Origin: a virus
Length of the DNA: 25,970 nucleotides
IMG/VR virus record: IMGVR_UViG_3300031659_000080
Span: 1 to 25,970 of that record
Direction: 5' to 3' (one strand)
Positions 1,476-25,463 of the stretch are shown here, in pieces. The notes under the pieces are model-generated. The model saw nothing but the letters and a program-made list of their open reading frames with translations. It searched no databases and was not told where the DNA came from. Position 1 is the first letter of the stretch. Each line of letters opens with the position of its first letter. Both the position numbers and the translations under genes were made by a program.

Positions 1476-2405
1476 ATGACAGCCAGAACACTTCTTAAAC
1501 TAGACGGTTCAGACATTAGACAAATGTCGACGACTGAAATGGAAGCATTACAGACAGAAGCAATTCGTTTGTATGGCGCCGCTCCAACGGCAGTTATGAC
1601 ACAAGTGAGTGGCAGTGGTGCAGGTTTTTCTGCCATAGTAGATACTCGATTGCAAGCTGGTGCAGCAGGTAACGATAATACAAACTTTGATACAGAAGGT
1701 GAGACAGCAAACGTTTCAACTGTTTCAGTTAGTTATGACAAATTGAATCTTGCATATACAAGTGTTTCAGCCTGGTCTGATGGTACTTATGGTTATCCGC
1801 TTTATTTAGACGGTTCAAACAATTTGCAAGAATGTTCAGCACAGGATATGTATGATACGTTAATTCTTCCTGCGATTGATACGCTTACTTCAGGTAGTAC
1901 AGGTACAGCACAGGCCGGTACATATCGAATTCACACAGCAACCTCATTGTCAGGTCATACTTTAATTTCATCAACTCCTGTGTTTATTGATACTCGAGCA
2001 AACGCGGGTGCATATAGTGCAGCTGGTCTACCTGAAACACAAGACCAACCTACTACTATTACAAGCTATTATTTGTTTCGCGTTAATGCCGCATCACAAG
2101 CATCATTTGTGGCCCCTCTCGTTTTAGCAGATTCTGGTGCAACTATTCATGAAATGCCTGCAGCAAACTTAACAAACATGCTTCAAGATTCAATACAGTA
2201 TAATGCTTCACAAGTTGCAGGTACTAAGATATCTTATAATATTAACGGCAGTGGTAATACTCGTGGTTCAGCTATGGTTGATACAAGACTGAACTCCTCG
2301 ACATACCTTACAGACCAACAGAGTGATAACTATCGTTCACAAGAAGTGCCATCTGGGTCTGCAGCAACGATCAACACATATACCTTTAAGATAACTCAAG
2401 TTTAA
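1476..2405 (+). CDS. Tail fibre-like virion protein with three DTR repeats
   Basis: This 309-residue protein is rich in Ser, Thr, Ala, Gly and Asn and lacks a signal peptide. A short N-terminal domain (MTARTLLKLDGSDIRQMS, with an E/A-rich helix to about residue 35) is followed by beta-rich units. In these the motif (I/M)VDTRL or FIDTRA recurs near residues 53, 171 and 269. Each is followed by a TEGE, ETQDQP or QSDNYRS stretch and an aromatic beta strand such as YLFRV or YTFKI. I remember similar proteins beside fibre genes of marine T4-like phages; I know no biochemical function for them. It lies five bases after the previous gene and is the last gene before the promoter-bearing element at 2407, so it closes the first structural block. 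Confidence 0.6.
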   Translation: MTARTLLKLDGSDIRQMSTTEMEALQTEAIRLYGAAPTAVMTQVSGSGAGFSAIVDTRLQAGAAGNDNTNFDTEGETANVSTVSVSYDKLNLAYTSVSAWSDGTYGYPLYLDGSNNLQECSAQDMYDTLILPAIDTLTSGSTGTAQAGTYRIHTATSLSGHTLISSTPVFIDTRANAGAYSAAGLPETQDQPTTITSYYLFRVNAASQASFVAPLVLADSGATIHEMPAANLTNMLQDSIQYNASQVAGTKISYNINGSGNTRGSAMVDTRLNSSTYLTDQQSDNYRSQEVPSGSAATINTYTFKITQV

Positions 2406-2406
2406 G

Positions 2407-2480
2407 GTATACTATACTCTCCCCTTCTTAAAAGACTCTATTAATTATACCACTACAGCCACGGTTTGTAAACCCCTAAA
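2407..2480 (-). repeat. Promoter-bearing intergenic element, copy A
   Basis: This stretch aligns by eye with 7622-7690. On the + strand both begin GTATACTAT directly at or after a stop codon, pass through a CCCTTC tract, an ACTCT stretch, ATTATA and CTACAG, and end in GTAAACCCC(C)TAAA. A related end (GTAAATCCCCTAAATG) recurs at 24871-24886. Read on the reverse strand, each is a sigma70-type promoter. The repetition at three junctions of inserted genes suggests a dispersed regulatory cassette. Confidence 0.7.
2444..2472 (-). promoter_or_regulatory. Reverse-strand sigma70-type promoter
   Basis: On the reverse strand TTTACA (2472-2467) and TATAAT (2449-2444) are separated by exactly 17 bases, and the -35 box is preceded by TTAGGGG. 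Transcription would run leftward, antisense to the fibre gene at 1476-2405, where no convincing reverse-strand gene is visible. The hexamers and spacing are seen directly; activity is inferred. Confidence 0.7.
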
Positions 2481-2501
2481 ACGATAAATTTAAGGGTTTA
2501 C
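2468..2501. repeat. Inverted repeat joining two divergent -35 regions
   Basis: GTAAACCC (2468-2475) pairs with GGGTTTAC (2494-2501). After one C/A mismatch, TAAA pairs with TTTA, leaving an 8-base loop at 2481-2488. Each arm contains the TTTAC core of a promoter, one per strand. The element could act as DNA (paired promoters) or as an RNA hairpin. It lacks the U tract of an intrinsic terminator. Confidence 0.75.
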
Positions 2502-2525
2502 GAATGTGGATATATATAATATAAT
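2497..2525 (+). promoter_or_regulatory. Forward sigma70-type promoter for the accessory island
   Basis: TTTACG (2497-2502) and TATAAT (2520-2525) are 17 bases apart, and the -35 box is preceded by TTAAGGG, close to the upstream signature of the reverse-strand promoters in this window. It lies 24 bases before the start codon at 2549, so it would give a very short leader and drive the genes from 2549 onward separately from the late promoters. Confidence 0.7.
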
Positions 2526-2548
2526 ATTATTATCAAAGGATGAAATGA

Positions 2549-3052
2549 ATGGCAGAATTTAGTGGTAACATTCACAGTGTTACATTTATGGACTATCCCA
2601 AAAATTCGATGGTTGAAGTCCTGTATAAGGATCCAAATCACGACCACGAGGGGTTTACTCCCTGGCATATGGAAGTAGACTTTACTCAAGAAGCTTTCCG
2701 TGATTTACTAGAAGAAGTTTCTCTCGATGAGATTGAAGAAACAACACGGGCCAATATCAGAGCCGAACGGGCCTACTTCAACTCGCTAGTTGAAAAAAAG
2801 GTCAGTGATCTTCGTAGTGAGTGGGAAGACGGGGTTGCAGTCACCCCGCGAGATAGTATGAATGGCAAAGAACTGCTTGAATTAGTGGCTGCGAAGGGTC
2901 GCGATAAAGATTTTACCTTTGCTGTTAAGATTGCTATTTTGGAAGACCCAGTGATTGTTAAATCAAAAGACAAAGATTTAAAGTTGCGTATTCGCACAGC
3001 TAAAACTTTATGGGATCTGTTTTCAATTTACTTTGAAGCAAAAGATGTATAA
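2549..3052 (+). CDS. Hypothetical acidic protein, first gene of the accessory island
   Basis: I do not recognise this 167-residue protein with certainty. The start is supported by AAAGGA eight bases upstream. The N-terminal half is beta-prone (SVTFMDYPKNSMVEVLYKD) and then turns into charged helices (about residues 50-95, EE- and RAE-rich). The C-terminal part has alternating charge with a segment (FAVKIAILEDPVIVKSKDKD, then a basic TAKTLWDL helix, about residues 123-158). There is no signal peptide, membrane segment or cysteine cluster. It is the first gene after the forward promoter at 2497-2525 and overlaps the next gene by eight bases. From its position it may be an adaptor or accessory factor for the glycosyltransferase genes behind it; that is a guess. 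Confidence 0.6.
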   Translation: MAEFSGNIHSVTFMDYPKNSMVEVLYKDPNHDHEGFTPWHMEVDFTQEAFRDLLEEVSLDEIEETTRANIRAERAYFNSLVEKKVSDLRSEWEDGVAVTPRDSMNGKELLELVAAKGRDKDFTFAVKIAILEDPVIVKSKDKDLKLRIRTAKTLWDLFSIYFEAKDV

Positions 3053-3677
3053 CGTAATTTGTGTCAAGTTTGGCACGAAATATGATGAGTCCTATGTAAG
3101 AAAACTGTATCAAGATATTAGGAATCTCACTCAATCTGAATTCAAATTCTATTGTTATACTGATCGATGGACTGGACCATCAGACGGCATAGAACTGATT
3201 TGCCCTTTGGGTAAACCTACGCTTAAAGGTGTGTGGAACAAACTTCGATTGTTTGATCCTACAATGCCAATACCCCCATTAAATAAAACATATTTTTTTG
3301 ATTTGGATGTTAAAATACTAAAAGATCCACTTATCGATTTAGATCATTGGTCAAAGATCACGCTTGTCGACTCTCATTGGAAGGTGGGTAAGCTCTATAA
3401 TAGATTGTCAAACTATGATGTAAAGATCAACTCGTCAGTTATAGCTTGGGACCCAACACAAACAGAACATATTTGGCAGCACTTCAACACAGGGTTGCGT
3501 GATTACTATATGAGAAAGTATGTTGGCATAGACCGATTTATAGTACATGAAGATATTGAATATAATACATTCGATCATTTGTATATACAATCAAAGAAGT
3601 ATCAACCAGAAGTTGATTATGACGCAAATGTTTTGACTTTTGAGGAGATTGATGTTGAACTCGACGATCTTATATAG
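3045..3677 (+). CDS. Short glycosyltransferase-like protein (DxD type, first paralogue)
   Basis: This 210-residue cytoplasmic protein starts with a Rossmann-like strand (MYNVICVKFGTKYD). WNKLRLF stands at residues 64-70 and FFDLDVKIL at 84-92. The WNKL segment followed by a hydrophobic DxD is the arrangement of GT8-like nucleotide-sugar transferases, in which the DxD binds the metal and nucleotide sugar. I chose ATG 3045 over an in-frame TTG at 3033 because it is a standard start overlapping the previous stop. The protein resembles the one at 5144-5812 in N-terminal strand, WNKL and DxD positions, so the two are probably diverged duplicates. Donor sugar and acceptor are unknown. At about 210 residues it is shorter than typical GT8 enzymes and may be a minimal domain. 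Confidence 0.65.
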   Translation: MYNVICVKFGTKYDESYVRKLYQDIRNLTQSEFKFYCYTDRWTGPSDGIELICPLGKPTLKGVWNKLRLFDPTMPIPPLNKTYFFDLDVKILKDPLIDLDHWSKITLVDSHWKVGKLYNRLSNYDVKINSSVIAWDPTQTEHIWQHFNTGLRDYYMRKYVGIDRFIVHEDIEYNTFDHLYIQSKKYQPEVDYDANVLTFEEIDVELDDLI

Positions 3678-4281
3678 AGCGCTTAAACTGTCTGAAAAAG
3701 TATATGATGAGTCAATGTATGGTGTAGATGACTTGTATCGAATCAAAGATATTATACACAGCGTTGATCAAAATCACTGGAATAGCAAAGAGTGGTTAGC
3801 AAAAGAATTTTATAAACACTACAAGCATGATGCAGGTAAAATCCTTGTTGTTGGTGGGTGGTATGGAATGATGGCATATCATCTGCGGCAGCAATGGCCC
3901 AACGAACGCATGAATATCGAATCAACCGACATGGATCCCATGTGTGAAGTTTTCGCGTGGGATTTATTCGGGGACCAAGATATAAATTTCTATACATTGG
4001 AATCTGACGCCGGGGTGAAAATTGACATTAGTGAGCACACCGCGATTGTTAACACGAGTTGTGAACATATGGAACAGGAGGATTTACTTTCTTTAATTAA
4101 ACAAAAGGAAGATAGAACATGGGTTTGCTTTCAAACAAATGATCACGTAGAACTTGATTGTCATATTAATTGTTGGCCTACCGCATATGAGTTTGCGGCA
4201 TCTCTTGGGCTTAGACATGTGGCATATGCTGGTAGCCAGAAACAGGCTGGATTCAATCGGCATATGGTAATAGGTAAATGA
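3652..4281 (+). CDS. Class I SAM-dependent methyltransferase
   Basis: This 209-residue protein has the Rossmann methyltransferase plan. Glycine motif I is ILVVGGWYGMMAYHL (residues 64-78), an acidic motif TDMDP lies at 92-96 where the SAM ribose is usually bound, and NTSCEHM lies at 134-140 at the motif IV position. Motif I departs from the usual GxGxG but keeps two glycines before a GMMA helix cap. An ATG at 3652 with GAGGAG just upstream is the likely start. It lies inside the end of the preceding glycosyltransferase-like gene (26-base overlap) and ends in an ATGA overlap with the next. No target-recognition domain for DNA is apparent, so a small molecule, sugar or protein acceptor is more likely than DNA. 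The substrate is unknown. Confidence 0.75.
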   Translation: MLNSTILYRALKLSEKVYDESMYGVDDLYRIKDIIHSVDQNHWNSKEWLAKEFYKHYKHDAGKILVVGGWYGMMAYHLRQQWPNERMNIESTDMDPMCEVFAWDLFGDQDINFYTLESDAGVKIDISEHTAIVNTSCEHMEQEDLLSLIKQKEDRTWVCFQTNDHVELDCHINCWPTAYEFAASLGLRHVAYAGSQKQAGFNRHMVIGK

Positions 4282-5147
4282 GCAAAGTTGTTTATAGTGT
4301 ATTCATTGACATACCCGAAGATCGACTGGACAACCCGGGGTGGTTTGAGAATGGTGTACAAGTAGTAACTGATAAGAGTATACGGACAAAGGATGCCCTT
4401 TTAAACAATTATGATAAAGTAGTTGAACGGCAAAAACAATATGCAGAAGATATAGGCGCTGACTATCACCTATATGAATGGGATGAAGACTATCAAACCT
4501 TCGCCAAAACGTTCGAACAAGACTTCCCAGAAGTTTCTTATTACGATATTGTAAACTTCTATAAACATTGGACAATGCGTGAATTGGCAAAGCGGTATGA
4601 TTATATTTGTTATATGGATTTTGACGTTGTGCCGAACACAAAAGATTGTATATTTGCCGCACATGATATGGACAAGTTCGGTTGTGCTAATTCGAATGCG
4701 CTTGCGTCATGGGGAAAGACTGTGGATCCGAAAAACTATAATACATGTATTCGGAATCCATCTACTAAATATTGGAATGCGCACGCAATGTTATTAGAAA
4801 CCGGCCATGAAGCAGACAATAATGTATTTAACACTGGCATTATGGTAGCGTCAAAGGGGTTAATCGAGAGGTTGGATTACTTCATAGACTTCGGGAAAAA
4901 CATTGATCTGATGACTCGGTTGAAAACTGAAGAAGATTCAATGTATCCTCGGAATATTCAGAGAGTGTTCGGGTACGATAATGAGAGTCTGTTTTCATAT
5001 TTAGTCCATTCGAAGGACCTCCCGGTTGAGTTTTTAAACGGACCCTGGCACTATATTGTGGATGAAAAAATCCACGGTAAAAATGCTGTCGATCCATCAG
5101 CGAAGTTGTACCATTGTATTAATAAGAAAATGGAGTGGTTTCTATGA
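4278..5147 (+). CDS. Glycosyltransferase-like protein (DFDVVP motif)
   Basis: This 289-residue protein starts with a beta strand (VVYSVFIDI), has a long helical segment, and carries YMDFDVVP at residues 112-119. That is a DxD-type metal and nucleotide-sugar site, as in GT-A fold glycosyltransferases. A later FNTGIMVAS stretch (about residues 184-192) resembles the acceptor-side NTG motif seen in GT8- and GT32-like enzymes. Translation starts at an ATGA overlap with the methyltransferase gene and stops at an ATGA overlap with the next gene, so it lies in a strictly coupled row. It is larger than the two short glycosyltransferase-like proteins on either side and not clearly a paralogue of them. 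The glycan product cannot be inferred. Confidence 0.7.
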   Translation: MSKVVYSVFIDIPEDRLDNPGWFENGVQVVTDKSIRTKDALLNNYDKVVERQKQYAEDIGADYHLYEWDEDYQTFAKTFEQDFPEVSYYDIVNFYKHWTMRELAKRYDYICYMDFDVVPNTKDCIFAAHDMDKFGCANSNALASWGKTVDPKNYNTCIRNPSTKYWNAHAMLLETGHEADNNVFNTGIMVASKGLIERLDYFIDFGKNIDLMTRLKTEEDSMYPRNIQRVFGYDNESLFSYLVHSKDLPVEFLNGPWHYIVDEKIHGKNAVDPSAKLYHCINKKMEWFL

Positions 5148-5812
5148 AGGTTTTTTGCGTGCGCATCGGGGACAAGTATGGCCCACAATATGAAGAGTAT
5201 ATAAACAAGAAACTAGTTGGTTGTGATGTTCATTGGATAAGAGAACCATTCCAGCCATATGTGCCATTGCAATGGAATAAACTGTCAGTATTCAACATGG
5301 ATATTGATGAACCTGTTATTGTCATGGACATTGATAAGCTTTTAATTAATGACTATGAAGAAATAATTCACTATCCATGTAATAAAGGTGAGTTTGTAAG
5401 TGTGCCATTCTGGTGGAACTTTGACGGGACATCATTCAAAACAAGTGGTGGGTTCTACAAATTCTGGCCCAAGGAATGTAAAAACATATATCAAAAATAT
5501 GTGTCTGATATACCATATTGGACAAACTACTATATCAAAAACGGCTTAACAAATGGGCCAGTCAACGGCGAATTTATGTTTGTGCAGGATAACCTGGATG
5601 TTGAGCTTAAACTAATGCCAGACGCATGGTTCACCCGCTGGTTAAGTAATGATGATCCAGCTGGGTGTTCTAAAATTTCGGATAAATACATCGAAGTTAC
5701 CGGGAATACGCATTTATATGATGGCGAATTTCATAAAGATATTAAGATGGTTCATTTTACAAACAGTATGAATAAACCGCATGAATGGAAAGATTATGTC
5801 AAATACAATTGA
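5144..5812 (+). CDS. Short glycosyltransferase-like protein (DxD type, second paralogue)
   Basis: This 222-residue protein opens with MKVFCVRIGDKYG, has WNKLSVF at residues 44-50 and VMDIDKLLI at 60-68. This is the same order as in the protein at 3045-3677 (FGTKYD, WNKLRLF, FFDLDVKIL). The DID is the probable metal and nucleotide-sugar site of a GT-A fold. ATG 5144 is chosen over an upstream in-frame GTG because GGAG stands eight bases before it and it makes an ATGA overlap with the previous stop. A Trp- and Phe-rich middle (VPFWWNFDG) could form a sugar-binding surface. The gene overlaps the radical-SAM gene by 17 bases. Donor and acceptor are unknown. Confidence 0.65.
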   Translation: MKVFCVRIGDKYGPQYEEYINKKLVGCDVHWIREPFQPYVPLQWNKLSVFNMDIDEPVIVMDIDKLLINDYEEIIHYPCNKGEFVSVPFWWNFDGTSFKTSGGFYKFWPKECKNIYQKYVSDIPYWTNYYIKNGLTNGPVNGEFMFVQDNLDVELKLMPDAWFTRWLSNDDPAGCSKISDKYIEVTGNTHLYDGEFHKDIKMVHFTNSMNKPHEWKDYVKYN

Positions 5813-6572
5813 AAATTATGATGTTCAATATGAAAAGAAAACCCTTGGCCTTTGGCTAGACTTATCGACATATTGTAACGCCAAATGCCCGCAATGTCAT
5901 AGAACAAATGCCGATGGATTGGAAAAGGCAGATTGGCTTCCTCTTGTCCAATGGTCTTTAGCTGAATTCAAGAACATGTTTCCCAAAAAAACACTTGAAC
6001 ACATCAATCACTTTGATATTTGCGGCACATGGGGAGACCCAATAATGAATAAAGATATATTCGAAATCGTCAAATACATCATAGAAAATTCGACCGCAGA
6101 AATTGTAATAAACACAAACGGGAGTTTTCGAAATAGCGATTGGTGGTGGAATTTAGGAGTATGTGGCGGAAACAGACTCAAAGTTATGTGGGCGATTGAA
6201 GGTATAACACAAGAACAGCATTCTTTATATAGACAAAACACAAATCTAGAACTTGTTTTAGAAAATATGGAAATCTTTTCATGTGCTGGAGGCGTAAGTG
6301 AAGTCTTTACAGTAACATTTAAACACAACGAAGCCGATCTTCACAATATAGCAAAACTTGTCGAATCTCGTGGCGCGTCTGGCATATTCTTTGTCCAATC
6401 AAATAGGTTCTATGAAAACAACAAATTTCAATTCATTGATAAAACCGGGATAAAAAAGTATCTAGAAAAAAGTACCATTGAAAATAGCGATTTCTATTGG
6501 AAGCTGTGGGCATTATCTGAAGAAACTACTATGAAGGCGATTCATGAAGAAGCAAAAAAACATTCAGTGTGA
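5796..6572 (+). CDS. Radical SAM enzyme core
   Basis: This 258-residue protein contains the radical-SAM cluster motif C27-x3-C31-x2-C34 (YCNAKCPQC). A GTWGDP segment at residues 77-82 takes the place of the usual GGEP, NTNGS lies at 106-110 and IEGITQEQHSLYR at 134-146, giving the expected strand order of the partial TIM barrel. Such enzymes use a 4Fe-4S cluster to cleave S-adenosylmethionine and start radical chemistry. I chose ATG 5796, next to GGAAAG, over the ATG at 5781. The protein ends just where a C-terminal SPASM domain would begin. That domain is encoded in the next frame at 6544, with a 29-base overlap and an A7 run at 6554-6560. The substrate (peptide, sugar or other) is unknown. 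Confidence 0.85.
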   Translation: MSNTIENYDVQYEKKTLGLWLDLSTYCNAKCPQCHRTNADGLEKADWLPLVQWSLAEFKNMFPKKTLEHINHFDICGTWGDPIMNKDIFEIVKYIIENSTAEIVINTNGSFRNSDWWWNLGVCGGNRLKVMWAIEGITQEQHSLYRQNTNLELVLENMEIFSCAGGVSEVFTVTFKHNEADLHNIAKLVESRGASGIFFVQSNRFYENNKFQFIDKTGIKKYLEKSTIENSDFYWKLWALSEETTMKAIHEEAKKHSV

Positions 6573-6978
6573 GTGGATGTCAAAAAATAATGCATTAGTT
6601 AATATTGATGGGCAGGTATATCCATGTTGTTATTTTGCGAATTCATTCACGCTTAGACGAATTTTCGGACAGGATGTAAAGAAGGACTGGCCAGACGAAC
6701 TAAATATGGGTGGGCGTCATTGGAAAAAATCAGAAGAACGAAATTTGGATACTGTCTATGAAGTAAAAGATAGTTATTTTGATAACAGCGAAGCCCTAAA
6801 CCTAAAACATAATACCCTTGAAGATATATTAAATCACGATTGGTTCACAAAAACATTACCAGAATCTTGGGAAGACGAAACAAAAACACATAGGTTGTGT
6901 AGTAAGCATTGTTCGATTGATTCAGAACATTATATAAAAAACAAATCCAATTCCAGAAATCAAGATGAAACGAAATAG
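6544..6978 (+). CDS. SPASM-like iron-sulfur domain protein, separate from its radical-SAM core
   Basis: This 144-residue protein looks like the C-terminal auxiliary-cluster domain of a radical-SAM/SPASM enzyme. Cysteines lie at residues 9, 28, 29, 119 and 123, within IQCEWMSKNNALVNIDGQ, then YPCCYFAN, and at the end LCSKHC. Such domains bind extra 4Fe-4S clusters and help bind the substrate. Its ATG lies inside the end of the radical-SAM gene in the +1 frame, with AAGG six bases upstream, so independent coupled translation is possible. Removing one A from the A7 run at 6554-6560 would fuse both genes into one ordinary enzyme. Either the split is real and the domain acts in trans, or the gene pair carries a recent frameshift. 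Confidence 0.75.
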   Translation: MKKQKNIQCEWMSKNNALVNIDGQVYPCCYFANSFTLRRIFGQDVKKDWPDELNMGGRHWKKSEERNLDTVYEVKDSYFDNSEALNLKHNTLEDILNHDWFTKTLPESWEDETKTHRLCSKHCSIDSEHYIKNKSNSRNQDETK

Positions 6979-6996
6979 CATAGGGAATATGCAAAC

Positions 6997-7398
6997 ATGA
7001 CACAACCCCTAAATGAAAATAAATGTAACATTGAATGCCAATGGATGGACACAAACCGACTTTTGATTAATCCAGATGGACAAGTTTTACCGTGTTGCTA
7101 TTTTGCCAATGTGATATACACTTATGATAAATTGGGCGTGCCAGGAAAGATTGCTGAAAAACCCAATCAAGTGACAGATCAAATGGGTAATAAATTGGCT
7201 ATTAGTGAACAAACAAAATCAACCAACATTCTTATGAATTATTACCAAAACCGTGAAAAATATAACATTAACGAAAATTCACTAGAAGACATTATTACAA
7301 GTGATTGGTTTGTGAAAACATTACCCGAATCGTGGGATGATTCAGATAAGATAGCGTCGCATTGTGTCAAACATTGCACAAAGAAATCCGATGAATAG
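6997..7398 (+). CDS. Stand-alone SPASM-like iron-sulfur domain protein
   Basis: This 133-residue protein is a clear paralogue of the one at 6544-6978. It shares the pattern IxCxWM, then NPDGQVLPCCYFAN, then LEDI, DWFVKTLPESW, and a final HCVKHC. The cysteines are at residues 14, 33, 34, 123 and 127 (C10 is extra). It has its own ribosome binding site (AGGG 11 bases before ATG) and no radical-SAM core attached. It may therefore work in trans with the core at 5796-6572, or with a host or phage partner. The variable middle (residues 40-90) differs from its twin and might set specificity. Function is inferred from the cysteine layout only. Confidence 0.7.
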   Translation: MTQPLNENKCNIECQWMDTNRLLINPDGQVLPCCYFANVIYTYDKLGVPGKIAEKPNQVTDQMGNKLAISEQTKSTNILMNYYQNREKYNINENSLEDIITSDWFVKTLPESWDDSDKIASHCVKHCTKKSDE

Positions 7399-7489
7399 GT
7401 TTTGTGTTATTCCATTTATATCTTTAACTTCTGATAATAAAGGACTTACCAGACCTTGCTGTAAATATGCTATGGAATCTTCCTACTGA
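7391..7489 (+). pseudogene. Fragment of a further SPASM/Twitch-type cysteine-rich gene
   Basis: This 32-codon frame begins inside the stop of the previous gene and reads MNRFCVIPFISLT, then DNKGLTRPCCKYA, before a stop. The spacing C-x-x-P-F followed by a G and CC is the N-terminal layout of auxiliary-cluster proteins of the radical-SAM type, as in the neighbouring genes. It is far too short to be a full domain, and a frame at 7467 looks like its continuation. I read it as a decayed gene. Confidence 0.5.
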
Positions 7490-7622
7490 TGAATTAAAGA
7501 AAGTACACTCGACGTTAAAGGCTGATCTGTCTACTTTGTCTCCTACGAATAAGAATTATGACAAGGTAGATCACCTTGTTAATCATCAAATTGCAACATG
7601 GCTGCTGGATAGTTATATTTAG
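7467..7622 (+). pseudogene. Out-of-frame continuation of a decayed cysteine-rich gene, or a small ORF
   Basis: This 51-codon frame reads MLWNLPTDELKKVHSTLKAD and ends in HQIATWLLDSYI. A WN...ELKKV segment often follows the CC motif in SPASM/Twitch-type proteins, so this may be the downstream part of the fragment at 7391, shifted in frame and joined to unrelated sequence. No ribosome binding site was seen. Its stop codon TAG shares its last base with the GTATACTAT that starts element B. A genuine 51-residue protein is possible but less likely. Confidence 0.35.
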
Positions 7623-7690
7623 TATACTATCCCTTCCATAAGATACTCTTATATTATATCGATATTCTACAGAAAGTAAACCCCCTAAAT
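7622..7690 (-). repeat. Promoter-bearing intergenic element, copy B
   Basis: This is the right-hand relative of the element at 2407-2480, in the same orientation: GTATACTAT, a CCCTTC tract, ACTCTTATATTATA, CTACAG and GTAAACCCCC-TAAATG in the same order. With copy A it brackets the island of glycosyltransferase, methyltransferase and radical-SAM genes. It lacks the second inverted-repeat arm and the forward promoter of copy A. Confidence 0.7.
7653..7680 (-). promoter_or_regulatory. Reverse-strand sigma70-type promoter
   Basis: On the reverse strand TTTACT (7680-7675) and TATAAT (7658-7653) are 16 bases apart, and the -35 box is preceded by TTAGGGGG. It would transcribe leftward into the cysteine-rich genes in antisense. 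No reverse-strand gene is evident downstream. Confidence 0.6.
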
Positions 7691-7865
7691 GATATGTAAA
7701 GCACCTTTTTTAGGCATGACTGTTGATCCAAGGGGTATGCTAACATTATGTTGCGCCACCAACAATAGGAAATACTTTAATACGAATCATACGAAAATGA
7801 TGAACCGGGTCAGAGGAATAGATATTTTTGAAATTGAACCGCGATTATCGTCAATCTTCGAATGA
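7689..7865 (+). pseudogene. N-terminal remnant of another SPASM/Twitch-type cysteine-rich protein
   Basis: This 58-codon frame reads MICKAPFLGMTVDP, then RGMLTLCCATNNRKY, and stops after 58 residues. The layout C-x-x-P-F, DP-x-G, CC matches the auxiliary-cluster domains upstream, but the later cysteines and any radical-SAM core are missing. No ribosome binding site precedes it, and the -35 region of the reverse promoter ends nine bases upstream. I read it as the remainder of a deleted gene, third in a row of similar pieces. A short functional iron-binding peptide cannot be excluded. The rest of the 507-base interval 7399-7905 holds only the two fragments at 7391-7622, element B and a late promoter. 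Confidence 0.5.
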
Positions 7866-7872
7866 AAAGTGT

Positions 7873-7880
7873 TATAAATA
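7873..7880 (+). promoter_or_regulatory. T4-type late promoter
   Basis: An exact TATAAATA octamer, the sequence recognised by the T4 late sigma factor gp55 with gp33 and gp45, lies 26 bases before the start codon at 7906. It restarts late transcription after the accessory island. Confidence 0.8.
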
Positions 7881-7905: not shown

Positions 7906-8238
7906 ATGGCTATATACGAAGATTTCCTTATGGAACAAGGCGCGTCGTTTAAATACAACGTTACTATCGAAACTCCTGCTGGTGGTGCATACGATCTATC
8001 TGGTCATACCCTGTCCGCAAAGATGAAAAAGACGTACGGTTCTGCGACGACGACTGAAACCTTTACCGCCAGCACCACATCGCTGCCCGGTGAAATTCAG
8101 CTGGTTCTTACCGATGAACAAACTTCTTCTATTAAAGCAGGTCGTTATGTTTTCGATATCGTAATGGAGACGCCATCAACTGATAAATATCGTGTGGTAG
8201 AGGGCCAGATTACGGTTTCTCCTGGTGTGACGGTGTAG
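7906..8238 (+). CDS. Small beta-sandwich virion protein (BppU-like N-terminal domain type)
   Basis: This 110-residue protein begins FLMEQGASFKYNV and continues with alternating beta strands (YDLSGHTLSAKM, GEIQLVLTDEQT, AGRYVFDIVM, RVVEGQITVSPGVTV). The order 'L-x-G-x-x-L/A-K-M ... I-x-L-x-L-T-x-x-Q-T ... G-x-Y-x-F-D-I ... V-x-E-G-x-I-T-V-x-P-G-V-T' is that of an immunoglobulin-like baseplate or decoration domain of the BppU N-terminal type. It is found in marine T4-like phages in my memory. It sits directly behind a late promoter (26 bases) and four bases before the next structural gene. A role as a baseplate or fibre attachment piece is likely; the exact place is unknown. Confidence 0.65.
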   Translation: MAIYEDFLMEQGASFKYNVTIETPAGGAYDLSGHTLSAKMKKTYGSATTTETFTASTTSLPGEIQLVLTDEQTSSIKAGRYVFDIVMETPSTDKYRVVEGQITVSPGVTV

Positions 8239-10425: not shown

Positions 10426-12021
10426 ATGGTCACCATCACGAAGCGCAGCGTAAAAGGCTCACCACTCACAAATGACGAAGTTGATGCTAACTTCGACAAT
10501 CTTAATACTGGAAAGTTGGAAATTACTGCTTCAACTGGGTCTGCAACTGTACCTAAAGGTACAACTGCGCAGCGTGATGGTTCACCTGCAACAGGAATGA
10601 TTCGCTATAATTCTACCTTAGAAGAATTTGAGGGATACACCGATAATGGTTGGATAGGGATCGGCGACGGGCTCGATTCGGCTGAAGTAATACAATTAGG
10701 GCATGATGCTCTTGACGGATTCGTTTCTGACGAACACATTGCCCACTCGGGTGTAAATGTAGTTGCTGGTGCCGGCCTTACCGGTGGTGGTTCAATAGCT
10801 GCGAGTAGAACAATCAATGTTGTTGGTGGTACGGGCATTACCGTAAATGCTGATAATATAACCACTACAGATGGAGAAATTGTTCACGACAATCTATCAG
10901 GTTTCGTAGCCAATGAGCATATTGATCACTCAGGTGTAACATTAACTGCTGGCACTGGTTTAAGTGGCGGCGGGACAATCACTGCAAACCGTACTTTTAA
11001 TATCGACTCGGCCGAATTTCTTGCGGCTTTTGAGTCAAGTATTAATCACGATAACTTAACAGCCTTTGTTGCTAACGAACACATTGATCATACCAGTGTG
11101 AGCGTCACAGCTGGCGCAGGGTTGACTGGTGGAGGTACGCTTGCTTCAACCCGGGACATCGCGGTTGGTGCAGGTACAGGTATTACAGTCAATGCAGATA
11201 ATATAACTACGAACGATGGTGCCATTGTTCACGATAATCTTTCTGGTTTCGTAGCAAATGAGCATATCGATCACTCAGGTGTTTCGATCGTCGCTGGCAC
11301 AGGACTTACTGGCGGTGGTACAATCACTGCAAACCGAACACTTAATGTCATCGGTGGAGTTGGTATTGATGCAAATGCTGATGATGTAGCGATTGACTCT
11401 GCAGAATTTCTAGCGTATTTTAACCCATCGATTGTTCATGATAACCTAAGTGGGTTTGTTGCTAACGAGCATATTGATCATACTGGTGTTTCAGTTGTTG
11501 CTGGTGCCGGTTTAACTGGTGGTGGTACTATCGCGGCTAGCAGGACATTAAACGTCATAGCTGGTACTGGTATTACGGTTAATGCAGATAATATAACCAC
11601 AAATGATGGACAAATTGTTCACGACAATCTATCAGGTTTCGTAGCCAATGAGCATATTGATCATACTGGTGTTTCAGTTGTTGCTGGTGCCGGTTTAACT
11701 GGTGGTGGTACTATCGCGGCTAGCAGAACGCTGAATGTTATCGCTGGTACTGGTATTACAGTCAATGCTGATAACATAACTACGAACGATGGTCAAATTG
11801 TTCACGACAACCTAAGCGGATTTGTTGCTAACGAGCATATTGATCACTCAGGTGTAACATTAACTGCTGGCACTGGCATGACTGGTGGCGGAACCATTGC
11901 TGCCAGTAGAACATTCAATGTTGCGGGAGTTACATCATCGATGTTCTCAAGTGCAAGTACGGTATTAATTAAGAATGCTGCTGGGACTACCTTGAAAACA
12001 ATCAGATCACCGGGATCATAA
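10426..12021 (+). CDS. Tail fibre protein with HDNL...GGG repeats
   Basis: This 531-residue protein has an N-terminal domain (MVTITKRSVKGSPLTNDEVDANF, then ATGMIRYNSTLEEFEGY, about residues 1-85) of the kind that anchors fibres to the baseplate. About seven repeats of roughly 55-65 residues follow, each with HDNLSGFVANEHIDHSGV, then AGTGLTGGGTI, ANRT or ASRT, and often TGITVNADNITT. Two repeats are replaced by an IDSAEFLA variant. The protein ends in STVLIKNAAGTTLKTI plus five residues, the same C-terminal module as in the fibre at 758-1471. The repeat type is well known from tail fibres and predicts a trimeric beta-helical shaft. No chaperone or peptidase domain is visible at the C-terminus, so the receptor-binding tip may be another protein. 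Confidence 0.85.
   Translation: MVTITKRSVKGSPLTNDEVDANFDNLNTGKLEITASTGSATVPKGTTAQRDGSPATGMIRYNSTLEEFEGYTDNGWIGIGDGLDSAEVIQLGHDALDGFVSDEHIAHSGVNVVAGAGLTGGGSIAASRTINVVGGTGITVNADNITTTDGEIVHDNLSGFVANEHIDHSGVTLTAGTGLSGGGTITANRTFNIDSAEFLAAFESSINHDNLTAFVANEHIDHTSVSVTAGAGLTGGGTLASTRDIAVGAGTGITVNADNITTNDGAIVHDNLSGFVANEHIDHSGVSIVAGTGLTGGGTITANRTLNVIGGVGIDANADDVAIDSAEFLAYFNPSIVHDNLSGFVANEHIDHTGVSVVAGAGLTGGGTIAASRTLNVIAGTGITVNADNITTNDGQIVHDNLSGFVANEHIDHTGVSVVAGAGLTGGGTIAASRTLNVIAGTGITVNADNITTNDGQIVHDNLSGFVANEHIDHSGVTLTAGTGMTGGGTIAASRTFNVAGVTSSMFSSASTVLIKNAAGTTLKTIRSPGS
11467..11726 (+). repeat. 77-base identical direct repeat inside the fibre gene
   Basis: Bases 11467-11543 and 11650-11726 are identical over 77 positions, with a spacing of 183 bases (61 codons). 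The other repeat units of the gene are clearly more diverged. The identity suggests a recent duplication or gene conversion, and the spacing keeps the frame. Confidence 0.85.
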
Positions 12022-23978: not shown

Positions 23979-24000
23979 TAGCTACGATAAAAACAATAAA

Positions 24001-24022
24001 GGAGAGGGAACCAACCCTCTCC
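24001..24022. repeat. Hairpin behind the capsid gene
   Basis: GGAGAGGG (24001-24008) pairs with CCCTCTCC (24015-24022) around an AACCAA loop. No T tract follows. It may protect the capsid message 3' end and lies 16 bases before the true terminator. Confidence 0.8.
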
Positions 24023-24038
24023 GACTTTAACTAATAAG

Positions 24039-24065
24039 AAAGAGCAATTCGTTGCTCTTTTTTTT
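24039..24065 (+). terminator. Rho-independent terminator of the capsid operon
   Basis: AAAGAGCAA (24039-24047) and TTGCTCTTT (24052-24060) form a 9-base-pair stem with a TTCG tetraloop, and the T tract extends to 24065. This is a textbook intrinsic terminator for the forward strand. Read in reverse it has only a mixed CTTATT tail, so it would be weaker for the opposing genes that end at 24072. Confidence 0.92.
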
Positions 24066-24071
24066 ATGTGA

Positions 24072-24287
24072 TTAGAAAGTCAGTCGCACCGGTTTGGTGT
24101 AACCCTTATCCAATAAGCTTTTGTAATATATGCGTGCGGTTGCAATAGGCATCGAGCAGCCCATACCGATGTTATGGTTCATGATTTCCACCTCGTCTTC
24201 ATTTGGTGTAAAATGAACAGCGCAAACGCTACCAGTAGAACCGGCAGGACGAAGAGGTGAATATAGCGTGTGATAACGATTTGACAT
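24072..24287 (-). CDS. Hypothetical 71-residue protein, reverse-strand cassette
   Basis: I do not recognise this protein. It starts MSNRYHTLYSPLRPAGSTGS, has a beta strand VCAVHF and an acidic DEVEIMNHNIGMGCS segment, and ends basic (LLDKGYTKPVRLTF). AAGGAG stands eight bases before its ATG on the reverse strand, which makes it a real gene rather than a shadow frame. It is the second gene of a two-gene unit behind the promoter at 24847-24875. It ends seven bases from the capsid terminator, opposing the late genes. Reverse orientation and a sigma70-type promoter point to early or middle expression, perhaps in host takeover. That is inference. Confidence 0.7.
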   Translation of the reverse strand: MSNRYHTLYSPLRPAGSTGSVCAVHFTPNEDEVEIMNHNIGMGCSMPIATARIYYKSLLDKGYTKPVRLTF

Positions 24288-24325: not shown

Positions 24326-24817
24326 TTATCCCTTAACGTTAATTAATGTTCTATAGTGTAAGCATTGGATGTTATATCCGCCAGCTAAGATCGTATCGAC
24401 TGTAACTGTTTTATTACCTTTTTCGGTCTTAACTTTGAAGTAGCCGTTAAATCCGTCTGCTGAGTGTATTACTTCGCCTTCCATAACTTCTGTAATTTGT
24501 GCCTTTGTAAGCTTATTAGCAATGGAAGCGTTACGGGATTTAATAACACGGTCTGCTTTTTTAGCACCCTGTTCTGTAATACCTGCATCGTTGTAATAAC
24601 CAGGTTGAATAATTTGGAATGTACCTTTGCCACCAGCTATGTTCACCATAGTCTCGTAGCGTTCTTCCGCCCTCATTTGTTTGGCTTCGTCTGACACCAT
24701 GAATTCTTTAAGTGCTGCTTTGCGATCGAACAAATATTGGATAGTAGCTTCACGGTATTTAACATCGAAATGCTCGAAGGTTGTTTCTAATGTTTCTGTG
24801 ATTTGCGTGAAAGACAT
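24326..24817 (-). CDS. Hypothetical 163-residue protein, reverse-strand cassette
   Basis: I do not recognise this 163-residue protein. It has a helical N-terminal half (TQITETLETTFEHFDVKYRE, then RKAALKEFM and EAKQMRAEERYETMVN). A glycine-rich turn (IAGGKGTFQIIQPGYYNDAG) follows, then a basic helix and a beta-rich C-terminus (GYFKVKTEKGNKTVTVDTIL). No signal peptide, membrane segment or metal site is visible. AAAGGA lies about nine bases before the ATG on the reverse strand, and a sigma70-type promoter with exact 17-base spacing stands just upstream. The gene is thus the first of an early-type reverse unit inserted between gp23 and a late tail gene. Confidence 0.75.
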   Translation of the reverse strand: MSFTQITETLETTFEHFDVKYREATIQYLFDRKAALKEFMVSDEAKQMRAEERYETMVNIAGGKGTFQIIQPGYYNDAGITEQGAKKADRVIKSRNASIANKLTKAQITEVMEGEVIHSADGFNGYFKVKTEKGNKTVTVDTILAGGYNIQCLHYRTLINVKG

Positions 24818-24846
24818 AATAGATGTTCCTTTGTTTGTTGTATACT

Positions 24847-24875
24847 ATTATACACTATTTCAAATCAAATGTAAA
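24847..24875 (-). promoter_or_regulatory. Reverse-strand sigma70-type promoter of the 24072-24817 unit
   Basis: On the reverse strand TTTACA (24875-24870) and TATAAT (24852-24847) are exactly 17 bases apart, and the -35 box is preceded by TTAGGGGA. The start codon of the 163-residue gene lies 30 bases downstream. This copy, with a proper gene behind it, supports the reading of the two similar boxes at 2444 and 7653 as promoters. Confidence 0.8.
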
Positions 24876-24907
24876 TCCCCTAAATGAACTTTACCGACTT
24901 TTTTTGA

Positions 24908-24939: not shown

Positions 24940-25452
24940 ATGGCTACTACAGAATCGACACTAGAATCACAGAACTTTCTACAGCCTACAGGCTTTAAAA
25001 TAGTTGTAAACAGAAAAAGATTTAAAAACCTAGAGTTTTTTGCGCAGTCCGTTGCACACCCAGACCTAAGTGTGTCGCCTGCGATAGTACAGTTCCGTGG
25101 TACTAATGCTCAAATGCCTGGGGATAAATTAGAGTATGGCACACTTACAATAGATGCTATCATGGATGAAAATATGAACGTCTATAAAGAAATGCACACT
25201 TGGTTAAAAAGTACTGTAGAAGATAATTACGCCGTTTCAAATTCGATTACTGCTGCGGATCAGGATCTTACTACGTATGACATCAGTCTTATGATTTTAA
25301 GCAGTCATAATAACACTATAGATAAGATTAGATATAAAGACGCCTTTCCAATTAATATCGGTACAGTGAATTTTCAGTCGTCCGTGGATGGTGTGCAATA
25401 CGTAACATTCCCGATCACGCTTGCTTATACGACATTTACAATTACAGATTAA
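24940..25452 (+). CDS. gp19-fold tail structural protein (second tube-like protein)
   Basis: This 170-residue protein shares the layout of the tail tube protein at 18329. It has LQPTGFKIVVNRKRFKNLEF, then VQFRGTNAQMPGDKLEYGTL (compare VPFRGRQLKIAGDRTFDTW in gp19), a DENMNVYKEMHTWL helix and near the end DAFPINIGTVNFQSS and YVTFPITLAYTTF. Proteins of this subtype (with a PGDK/EY segment and a later D-x-x-M-x-x-Y helix) resemble the tube-fold domains of baseplate tube initiators such as gp54 and gp48. It may therefore be a tube initiator, tube terminator or minor tube protein rather than the main tube. A late promoter and AAGGAA precede it. The uvsY promoter is embedded in its end. Confidence 0.7.
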   Translation: MATTESTLESQNFLQPTGFKIVVNRKRFKNLEFFAQSVAHPDLSVSPAIVQFRGTNAQMPGDKLEYGTLTIDAIMDENMNVYKEMHTWLKSTVEDNYAVSNSITAADQDLTTYDISLMILSSHNNTIDKIRYKDAFPINIGTVNFQSSVDGVQYVTFPITLAYTTFTITD

Positions 25453-25463
25453 TATGGTATAAT
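25435..25463 (+). promoter_or_regulatory. Sigma70-type promoter for uvsY
   Basis: TTTACA (25435-25440) and TATAAT (25458-25463) are 17 bases apart, with the -35 box inside the last codons of the upstream tail gene. The TTAGGGG signature of the other early-type promoters is absent. uvsY starts 26 bases downstream, so this promoter lets the recombination gene be made before late transcription. Confidence 0.75.

What the first reader, a model, noticed from the sequence alone, without database searches (positions are those of the whole stretch)
2407..7690. Accessory island bracketed by two related promoter-bearing elements in direct orientation
Seen: elements at 2407-2480 and 7622-7690 share GTATACTAT, CCCTTC, ACTCT, ATTATA, CTACAG and GTAAACCCC(C)TAAA in the same order and orientation. 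Each begins at the stop codon of the gene before it. Between them lie the glycosyltransferase, methyltransferase and radical-SAM genes; on both sides lie structural genes. A third relative stands at the edge of the reverse-strand cassette behind gp23. Known: T4-type phages carry promoter/stem-loop cassettes (PeSLs) that mediate shuffling of gene modules. Inference: here such elements mark where cassettes have been exchanged inside an otherwise conserved late block.
Basis: partly seen in the sequence, partly recalled or inferred. Interest (0 to 1): 0.75.

Follow-up and report, generated by a model that had tools for sequence, protein, structure and literature searches.

The report
Reverse-facing phage promoters at cassette joints
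The two matching elements are copies of a small promoter-plus-leader unit that points backwards against the gene before it; many marine T4-like phages keep such a unit in front of their late-switch gene (gp55), and accessory genes come and go right beside it.

Summary
The elements are real. Read on the minus strand, E1 (2411-2481) and E2 (7617-7690) are strong sigma70/T4-early-type promoters followed by a conserved leader (inverted repeat, G-rich Shine-Dalgarno-like run, TAGTATACTA), but no gene. They fire against the plus genes and abut a stop codon. A profile built only from elements in front of the late sigma gene gp55 in other phages finds both (E=1.5e-10, 1.6e-9). At that site 33 of 40 non-redundant marine loci carry such a promoter (control windows 7%), and in at least four of the other seven it lies just beyond an inserted gene. 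C48C1 and five cyanophages have an analogous one. Near-identical units occur at different sites (94% over 63 nt). At gp55, accessory genes are present or absent directly beside a retained element (L091 vs L092), and a related radical-SAM module sits there in L046. But the window's island is not a unit bracketed by two repeats: the same island lacks E1 in its closest relatives, and none of 39 fibre loci has E1. E1 also holds a forward early promoter for the island. Function (antisense RNA, operon boundary or replication primer) is untested. I call it a new variant of PeSL-like regulatory cassettes.

The parts
2407..2481 (-). E1: minus-strand early promoter (-35 TTTACA 2472-2467, 17 nt, -10 TATAAT 2449-2444) plus leader (AAGAAGGGGAGAG, GTATAGTATAC), no gene; antisense to the fibre gene end
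   Evidence: 39.5 bits, E=1.5e-10
2494..2525 (+). Divergent forward early promoter in E1 (TTTACG-17-TATAAT) driving the island
2459..2509 (.). Stem-loop formed by the two divergent -35 regions (-22.3 kcal/mol, z -4.5); no U-tract
   Evidence: not flagged as terminator
7617..7690 (-). E2: minus-strand early promoter (-35 TTTACT 7680-7675, 16 nt, -10 TATAAT 7658-7653) plus leader (ATAAGA-GTA-TCTTAT, GGAAGGGA, TAGTATACTA), no gene
   Evidence: 36.2 bits, E=1.6e-9; same site occupied in G001, G002, G010, G019
24846..24885 (-). E3: ordinary early promoter of the minus gene 24817..24326; shares only the promoter half
   Evidence: 14.5 bits
24326..24817 (-). Minus-strand 163-aa gene behind gp23, driven by E3
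1476..2405 (+). Fibre-like structural gene whose stop abuts E1
2549..3052 (+). First island gene, 167 aa, unknown function, syntenic in G001/G002
3033..3677 (+). Glycosyltransferase-like gene
   Evidence: phrog_1962, 3.8e-7
3640..5812 (+).
   Evidence: orthologues in G001
5781..6572 (+). Radical SAM protein
   Evidence: phrog_21308, 1.2e-24
6544..7398 (+). Two SPASM-domain genes (6544-6978, 6997-7398)
7364..7622 (+). Deletion scar: N-terminus of a 386-aa radical SAM protein (residues 1-40) joined to the C-terminus of the next one (residues 284-333)
7689..7865 (+). Deletion scar: radical SAM gene reduced in frame to residues 1-33 + 337-362 (of G002's 362-aa protein); ATG abuts the E2 -35
7873..7880 (+). 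Late promoter TATAAATA before the 110-aa tail-fibre-assembly-like gene 7906-8238

Best explanation
E1 and E2 are two copies of a mobile promoter-leader cassette of marine T4-like phages: a sigma70 early promoter, an inverted repeat starting right after the -10, a G-rich Shine-Dalgarno-like run and TAGTATACTA, ending where a start codon would be. SHOWN: most copies are gene-less and face the 3' end of the preceding plus gene; one copy is positionally conserved in front of gp55; near-identical copies occur at different sites, sometimes as the sense leader of an accessory gene; accessory genes are inserted directly beside the element, on the -35 side (forward genes) or the leader side (reverse genes). 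INFERRED: (1) short homologous recombination between copies at different sites moves the unit and helps accessory modules dock there; (2) the gene-less state is kept because the backward promoter does something at early times, most simply making a short antisense transcript and opposing RNA polymerase at the end of the preceding (often late) operon, so that it acts as an operon boundary next to a forward early promoter.
For: Promoter identity and minus orientation. Family membership from an independent profile. gp55 site: 33/40 non-redundant upstream regions have the minus promoter, 27/40 with the G-run, against 7.2% and 0.35% of control windows; C48C1 and five cyanophages, 6 of 7 named phages tested. 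Of 69 distinct leader-type promoters 54 are antisense and 7 sense. Inverted repeat after the -10 in 72% of antisense elements against 14% of ordinary early promoters, p=1.3e-11, and stop codon 33-45 nt from the -10 in 51 of 54. Copies across sites: L093 (gp55) to L383 (sense leader of a glycosyltransferase-like gene) 94% over 63 nt; L270 (gp55) to E2 86% over 73 nt; L106 (gp55) to E1 77% over 70 nt. Gain or loss beside a retained element: L091 has a 260-aa gene between element and gp55 promoter that L092 lacks; L134 has a reverse gene on the leader side; L043/L046 have a radical-SAM module homologous to the window's (51-64% identity) between element and gp55. In the window E2 persists between two deletion scars.
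Against: No transcript data. The 5' arm of the inverted repeat lies upstream of the expected start site, so its role in the minus RNA is unclear. RNAalifold finds no consensus structure on the MAFFT alignment, and E2 folds no better than shuffles. At the site upstream of the 118-aa gene, only 4 of 80 relatives have a clear backward orphan element just upstream, so E2's position is not universal. Elements are about 75 nt, so trees of copies have modest support. The loci behind the 54:7 count were partly gathered by location or by pattern.
Confidence: 0.7

Rival explanations
1. Classical PeSL: an early promoter plus stem-loop terminator, with the island exchanged by recombination between the two copies E1 and E2.
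For: Early promoter at module joints; E1 has a strong stem-loop; copies at several sites.
Against: No terminator at either element; promoters point backwards; E1 absent in all 39 fibre loci including phages with the same island; E2-type element inside the island in G002.
Confidence: 0.15
2. Relics: leaders of reverse-strand early genes that have been lost, without present function.
For: Leader ends where an ATG would be; sense versions with genes exist (L298, L246, L383) and L134 has a reverse gene there.
Against: Conserved at one locus in 33 of 40 divergent loci and, with different sequence, in cyanophages; E2 kept intact between two deletions.
Confidence: 0.15
3. Replication-origin primers: the backward early promoter makes a G-rich RNA that forms an R-loop, as at T4 oriF/oriG/oriE.
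For: T4 origins are promoters whose transcripts prime, oriE with an early promoter (PMC3016281); one or two gene-less promoters per contig; G-run at the RNA 5' end; site near uvsW/gp55.
Against: No AT-rich unwinding element downstream (AT about the genome mean); no copy-number data; E1 and E2 positions vary between phages.
Confidence: 0.12
4. Ordinary early promoters that look alike only because sigma70 consensus is shared.
For: E3 and many sense promoters share TTTAGGGG-TTTAC-TATAAT.
Against: Similarity extends over leader and spacer; the profile separates E1/E2 (36-40 bits) from E3 (14.5 bits); no gene downstream.
Confidence: 0.05

Closest known systems
PeSLs, promoter(early)-stem-loop cassettes of T4-type phages (Arbiol et al. 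2010; Comeau et al. 2014; cited through PMC4503421, papers not held; content from titles and memory)
   Same: Small early-promoter cassettes at joints of accessory modules, several copies per phage group, linked to gene gain and loss
   Different: Face backwards, mostly without a gene, no terminator found; one copy fixed in front of gp55; inverted repeat lies after the -10
T4 early promoters (PMC2988021)
   Same: Strong sigma70 promoters; GTTTAC and TATAAT boxes at 16-17 nt
   Different: Extended TTTAGGGG box; the minus-strand copies read into non-coding antisense sequence
CfrI antisense RNA of cyanophage S-PM2 (PMC2984593)
   Same: Antisense transcription in a T4-like phage
   Different: CfrI lies at psbA and a homing endonuclease gene; the present element is at the gp55 junction in S-PM2 too, but no RNA has been shown there
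T4 origins oriF/oriG/oriE (PMC3016281)
   Same: Promoter whose RNA may have no coding role
   Different: No AT-rich unwinding element detected; R-loop not testable here

Membership tests
PeSL | Strong sigma70-like early promoter | tested here: met
   11 of 12 and 10 of 12 consensus matches
PeSL | Adjacent stem-loop | tested here: inconclusive
   E1 stem-loop -22.3 kcal/mol, z -4.5; E2 z 0.35; short inverted repeat after -10 enriched in the family
PeSL | Stem-loop acts as terminator | tested here: not met
   no terminator-like site at 2407-2530 or 7617-7700; activity itself not testable
PeSL | Promoter reads into the downstream gene or module | tested here: not met
   E1- and E2- face the preceding plus gene; only E1+ drives the island
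PeSL | Modules shuffled by recombination between copies | tested here: inconclusive
   gene presence/absence beside the element and near-identical copies at different sites, but no swap between two copies caught
T4-type early promoter | GTTTAC -35 and TATAAT -10, 16-17 nt apart | tested here: met
T4-type early promoter | Active at early times | not testable with these tools
   no RNA data
T4 R-loop origin | AT-rich unwinding element downstream of the promoter | tested here: not met
   AT 0.53-0.77 in 50-100 nt bins, genome 0.57-0.65
T4 R-loop origin | Persistent R-loop used as primer | not testable with these tools
   needs nucleic acid mapping
Known Rfam RNA family | Match to a covariance model | tested here: not met
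   only chance-level hits, none at the elements

The most novel reading that the evidence does not exclude
A gene-less backward early promoter is a conserved control element of the gp55 (late sigma) locus throughout the Kyanoviridae-type T4 phages, cyanophages included. Its antisense RNA or opposing polymerase separates the late uvsW operon from the early gp55 operon and so tunes the early-to-late switch, and copies of it have been reused elsewhere as docking sites for accessory cassettes.
Probability: 0.35. Interest if true: 0.78.

Novelty: new variant of a known kind. Interest (0 to 1): 0.62.

Why it matters
It ties the place where accessory genes (radical SAM enzymes, sugar and methyl transferases) enter a conserved late block to a recognisable element that can be searched for in marine phages. 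It also predicts an antisense transcript at the gene for the late sigma factor in already cultured cyanophages such as S-PM2, where strand-specific RNA-seq could test it directly. In the papers I could read, only one antisense RNA (CfrI) is reported for T4-like phages and none at gp55.

Tried and rejected
Near-identical named phages: none (81 bp only). Rfam: no family. RNAalifold on the element alignment: no consensus structure, so the inverted repeat rests on a shuffle test and a comparison with ordinary promoters, with pairing in mixed registers. A test of which strand's RNA folds, by G-U asymmetry, was not decisive. AT-rich unwinding element: not seen. My early reading that the closest relative lacks elements at both island edges was wrong for the right edge and was corrected. 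A start codon on the antisense strand at gp55 (from a conserved ..LH-stop end of the preceding gene) was considered, but E1, E2 and the other rSAM-site copies lack it. Two scripts failed to label gp55 sites because of a blast option; fixed. The PeSL papers are not held. T4's own gp55 lies in another context.
Full report
WHAT IS THERE. The window is a 25,970-bp IMG/VR fragment of a marine T4-like phage. Its portal protein is 65% identical to that of Phage C48C1, a Kyanoviridae member. Read on the minus strand, both are sigma70/T4-early-type promoters: E1 TTTACA-17-TATAAT (2472..2444) and E2 TTTACT-16-TATAAT (7680..7653). Downstream of each -10 lies a leader with a G-rich purine run and GTATAC, ending at the stop codon of the plus gene. 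There is no minus-strand gene behind either. E1 is a divergent pair: a plus promoter (TTTACG-17-TATAAT, 2497..2525) precedes the first island gene (2549), and the two -35 regions form a strong stem-loop (2459-2509, -22.3 kcal/mol, z -4.5) without a U-tract. The third relative at 24840 is the ordinary early promoter of the minus gene 24817..24326.

MORE THAN CHANCE. E1 and E2 align at 68% identity over about 94 nt, score 20 against a shuffle maximum of 11 in 1000. I aligned 23 elements from the gp55 site of other phages and built a sequence-only profile holding no window sequence. Over 415 kb it finds E1 (39.5 bits, E=1.5e-10) and E2 (36.2 bits, E=1.6e-9). It gives E3 only 14.5 bits, over the promoter half.

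A FAMILY WITH A HOME. Searching relatives showed the same backward promoter in front of gp55, the late sigma factor gene, right after the stop of the gene that follows uvsW. Of 40 non-redundant gp55 upstream regions 33 have a minus promoter with at most two mismatches, 27 of them with the G-run; in control windows of the same loci the rates are 7.2% and 0.35%. Of the seven without, L091, L119, L140 and L164 carry the element further away, beyond an inserted gene. Phage C48C1 has it, and in the cyanophages S-PM2, Syn19, Sf-FR1, P-RSM1 and S-SSM7 the same gap holds TTGACA-17-TANAAT on the minus strand followed by AACYCTGT..-type repeats; Melnitz-3 does not. In T4 gp55 lies in a different context. 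A genome-wide scan of the contigs finds one or two such antisense elements per contig.

ARCHITECTURE. Of 69 distinct promoters with this leader, 54 face the end of an opposing gene and 7 have a gene of their own. In 51 of the 54 the opposing stop codon lies 33-45 nt from the -10. An inverted repeat starting right after the -10 is present in 72% of antisense elements but 14% of ordinary early promoters of the same genomes (p=1.3e-11; shuffle test). RNAalifold finds no consensus and the registers are mixed, so I claim an enriched inverted repeat, not a proven RNA fold. Because its 5' arm lies upstream of the expected start site, its role is unexplained. The sense versions (L298, L383, L246) show that the leader is that of an early gene: G-rich run, TAGTATACT, then ATG. 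The orphan form lacks the start codon and gene.

MOBILITY AND CASSETTES. Elements at different sites are close copies, spacer included: the L093 gp55 element against L383, the sense leader of a glycosyltransferase-like gene before the 118-aa-gene homologue, 94% over 63 nt; the L270 gp55 element against E2, 86% over 73 nt; the L106 gp55 element against E1, 77% over 70 nt; and G002's two elements, 83% over 70 nt. Genes come and go beside the element. L092 has element, gp55 promoter and gp55; L091, a close relative, has a 260-aa gene inserted between the element's -35 and the gp55 promoter, its ATG abutting the -35. L119, L150, L156, L164 and L140 have other genes in that gap. L134 has a reverse-strand 299-aa gene on the leader side. 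In L043 and L046 a radical-SAM module related to the window's (51% and 64% identity) lies between the element and gp55. In the window, E2 remains between two deletion scars of radical-SAM genes.

WHAT IS NOT SUPPORTED. The island as a block bracketed by two repeats. G001 and G002 have the same gene order and the E2-site element, but nothing like E1 at the fibre junction; none of 39 fibre loci has it. E1 is an acquisition of this phage as far as the data go. In G002 and G010 the second element lies between two radical-SAM genes, so its edge position in the window results from the deletions. Upstream of the 118-aa gene only 4 of 80 loci (L349, L419, L423, L425) carry a clear element. No terminator was detected. 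In the distant phage Mosig a homologous accessory set lies on the opposite strand beside the same fibre gene, so this is a generally variable site.

HOW IT MOST LIKELY WORKS. Shown by sequence: strong backward promoters, fixed at gp55, copied to other joints, with accessory genes docking next to them. Inferred: recombination between short homologous copies spreads the unit and helps modules land. The gene-less state persists because backward early transcription marks and insulates the end of the preceding operon, or makes an antisense RNA against it; at gp55 and at E1 the element stands back to back with a forward early promoter at the end of what looks like a late operon. Replication priming is a rival: T4 origins are promoter-driven (PMC3016281), but no AT-rich unwinding element is evident here. 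Antisense RNA has one precedent in T4-likes, CfrI (PMC2984593).

VERDICT. Observation confirmed, with strand corrected. Interpretation partly supported. New variant of a known kind (PeSL-like regulatory cassettes), with an unexpected conserved copy at gp55.

Noticed in passing
window 7364-7865: Three radical-SAM genes that are full length in G001 or G002 are reduced here by two deletions to fused N- and C-terminal stubs.
   Followed up: yes
L042 55-4839 (G001): The 1594-aa structural protein upstream of the fibre gene in the closest relative appears to contain an intein-like Hint stretch (SCFIAGTLITMADGTKKKIEDVEIGE ... LLAHN); seen by eye in the translation only.
   Followed up: no
window 25434-25463 (+): A forward early promoter overlaps the end of the tail-tube-like gene and drives uvsY; its leader (hairpin, GGAG, TATAGT, ATG) has the same plan as the orphan leaders.
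   Followed up: partly
L077 12001-24457 (Pelagibacter phage Mosig): Homologues of the island genes (methyltransferase, MoaA-like radical SAM and others) lie on the opposite strand beside the same fibre gene.
   Followed up: partly
window 23979-24070: Two hairpins behind gp23, the second (AAAGAGCAATTCGTTGCTCTTTTTTTT) a good intrinsic terminator between convergent gp23 and a possible minus ORF 24072-24287.
   Followed up: no
window 10426-12021: A 531-aa gene built of repeats of about 60-65 residues (HDNLSGFVANEHIDHSGV...), a fibre-like repeat protein.
   Followed up: no
L050-L070: TTTAGGGGTTTAC-N22-24-TATAAT is a recurrent early-promoter form in several unrelated-looking marine phage groups, in sense orientation there.
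   Followed up: partly
L134 2406-3305; G002 45155-46063: An amidinotransferase-like gene is found behind the gp55 element in L134 but between uvsY and uvsW in G002, on the minus strand in both; assignment by eye.
   Followed up: no
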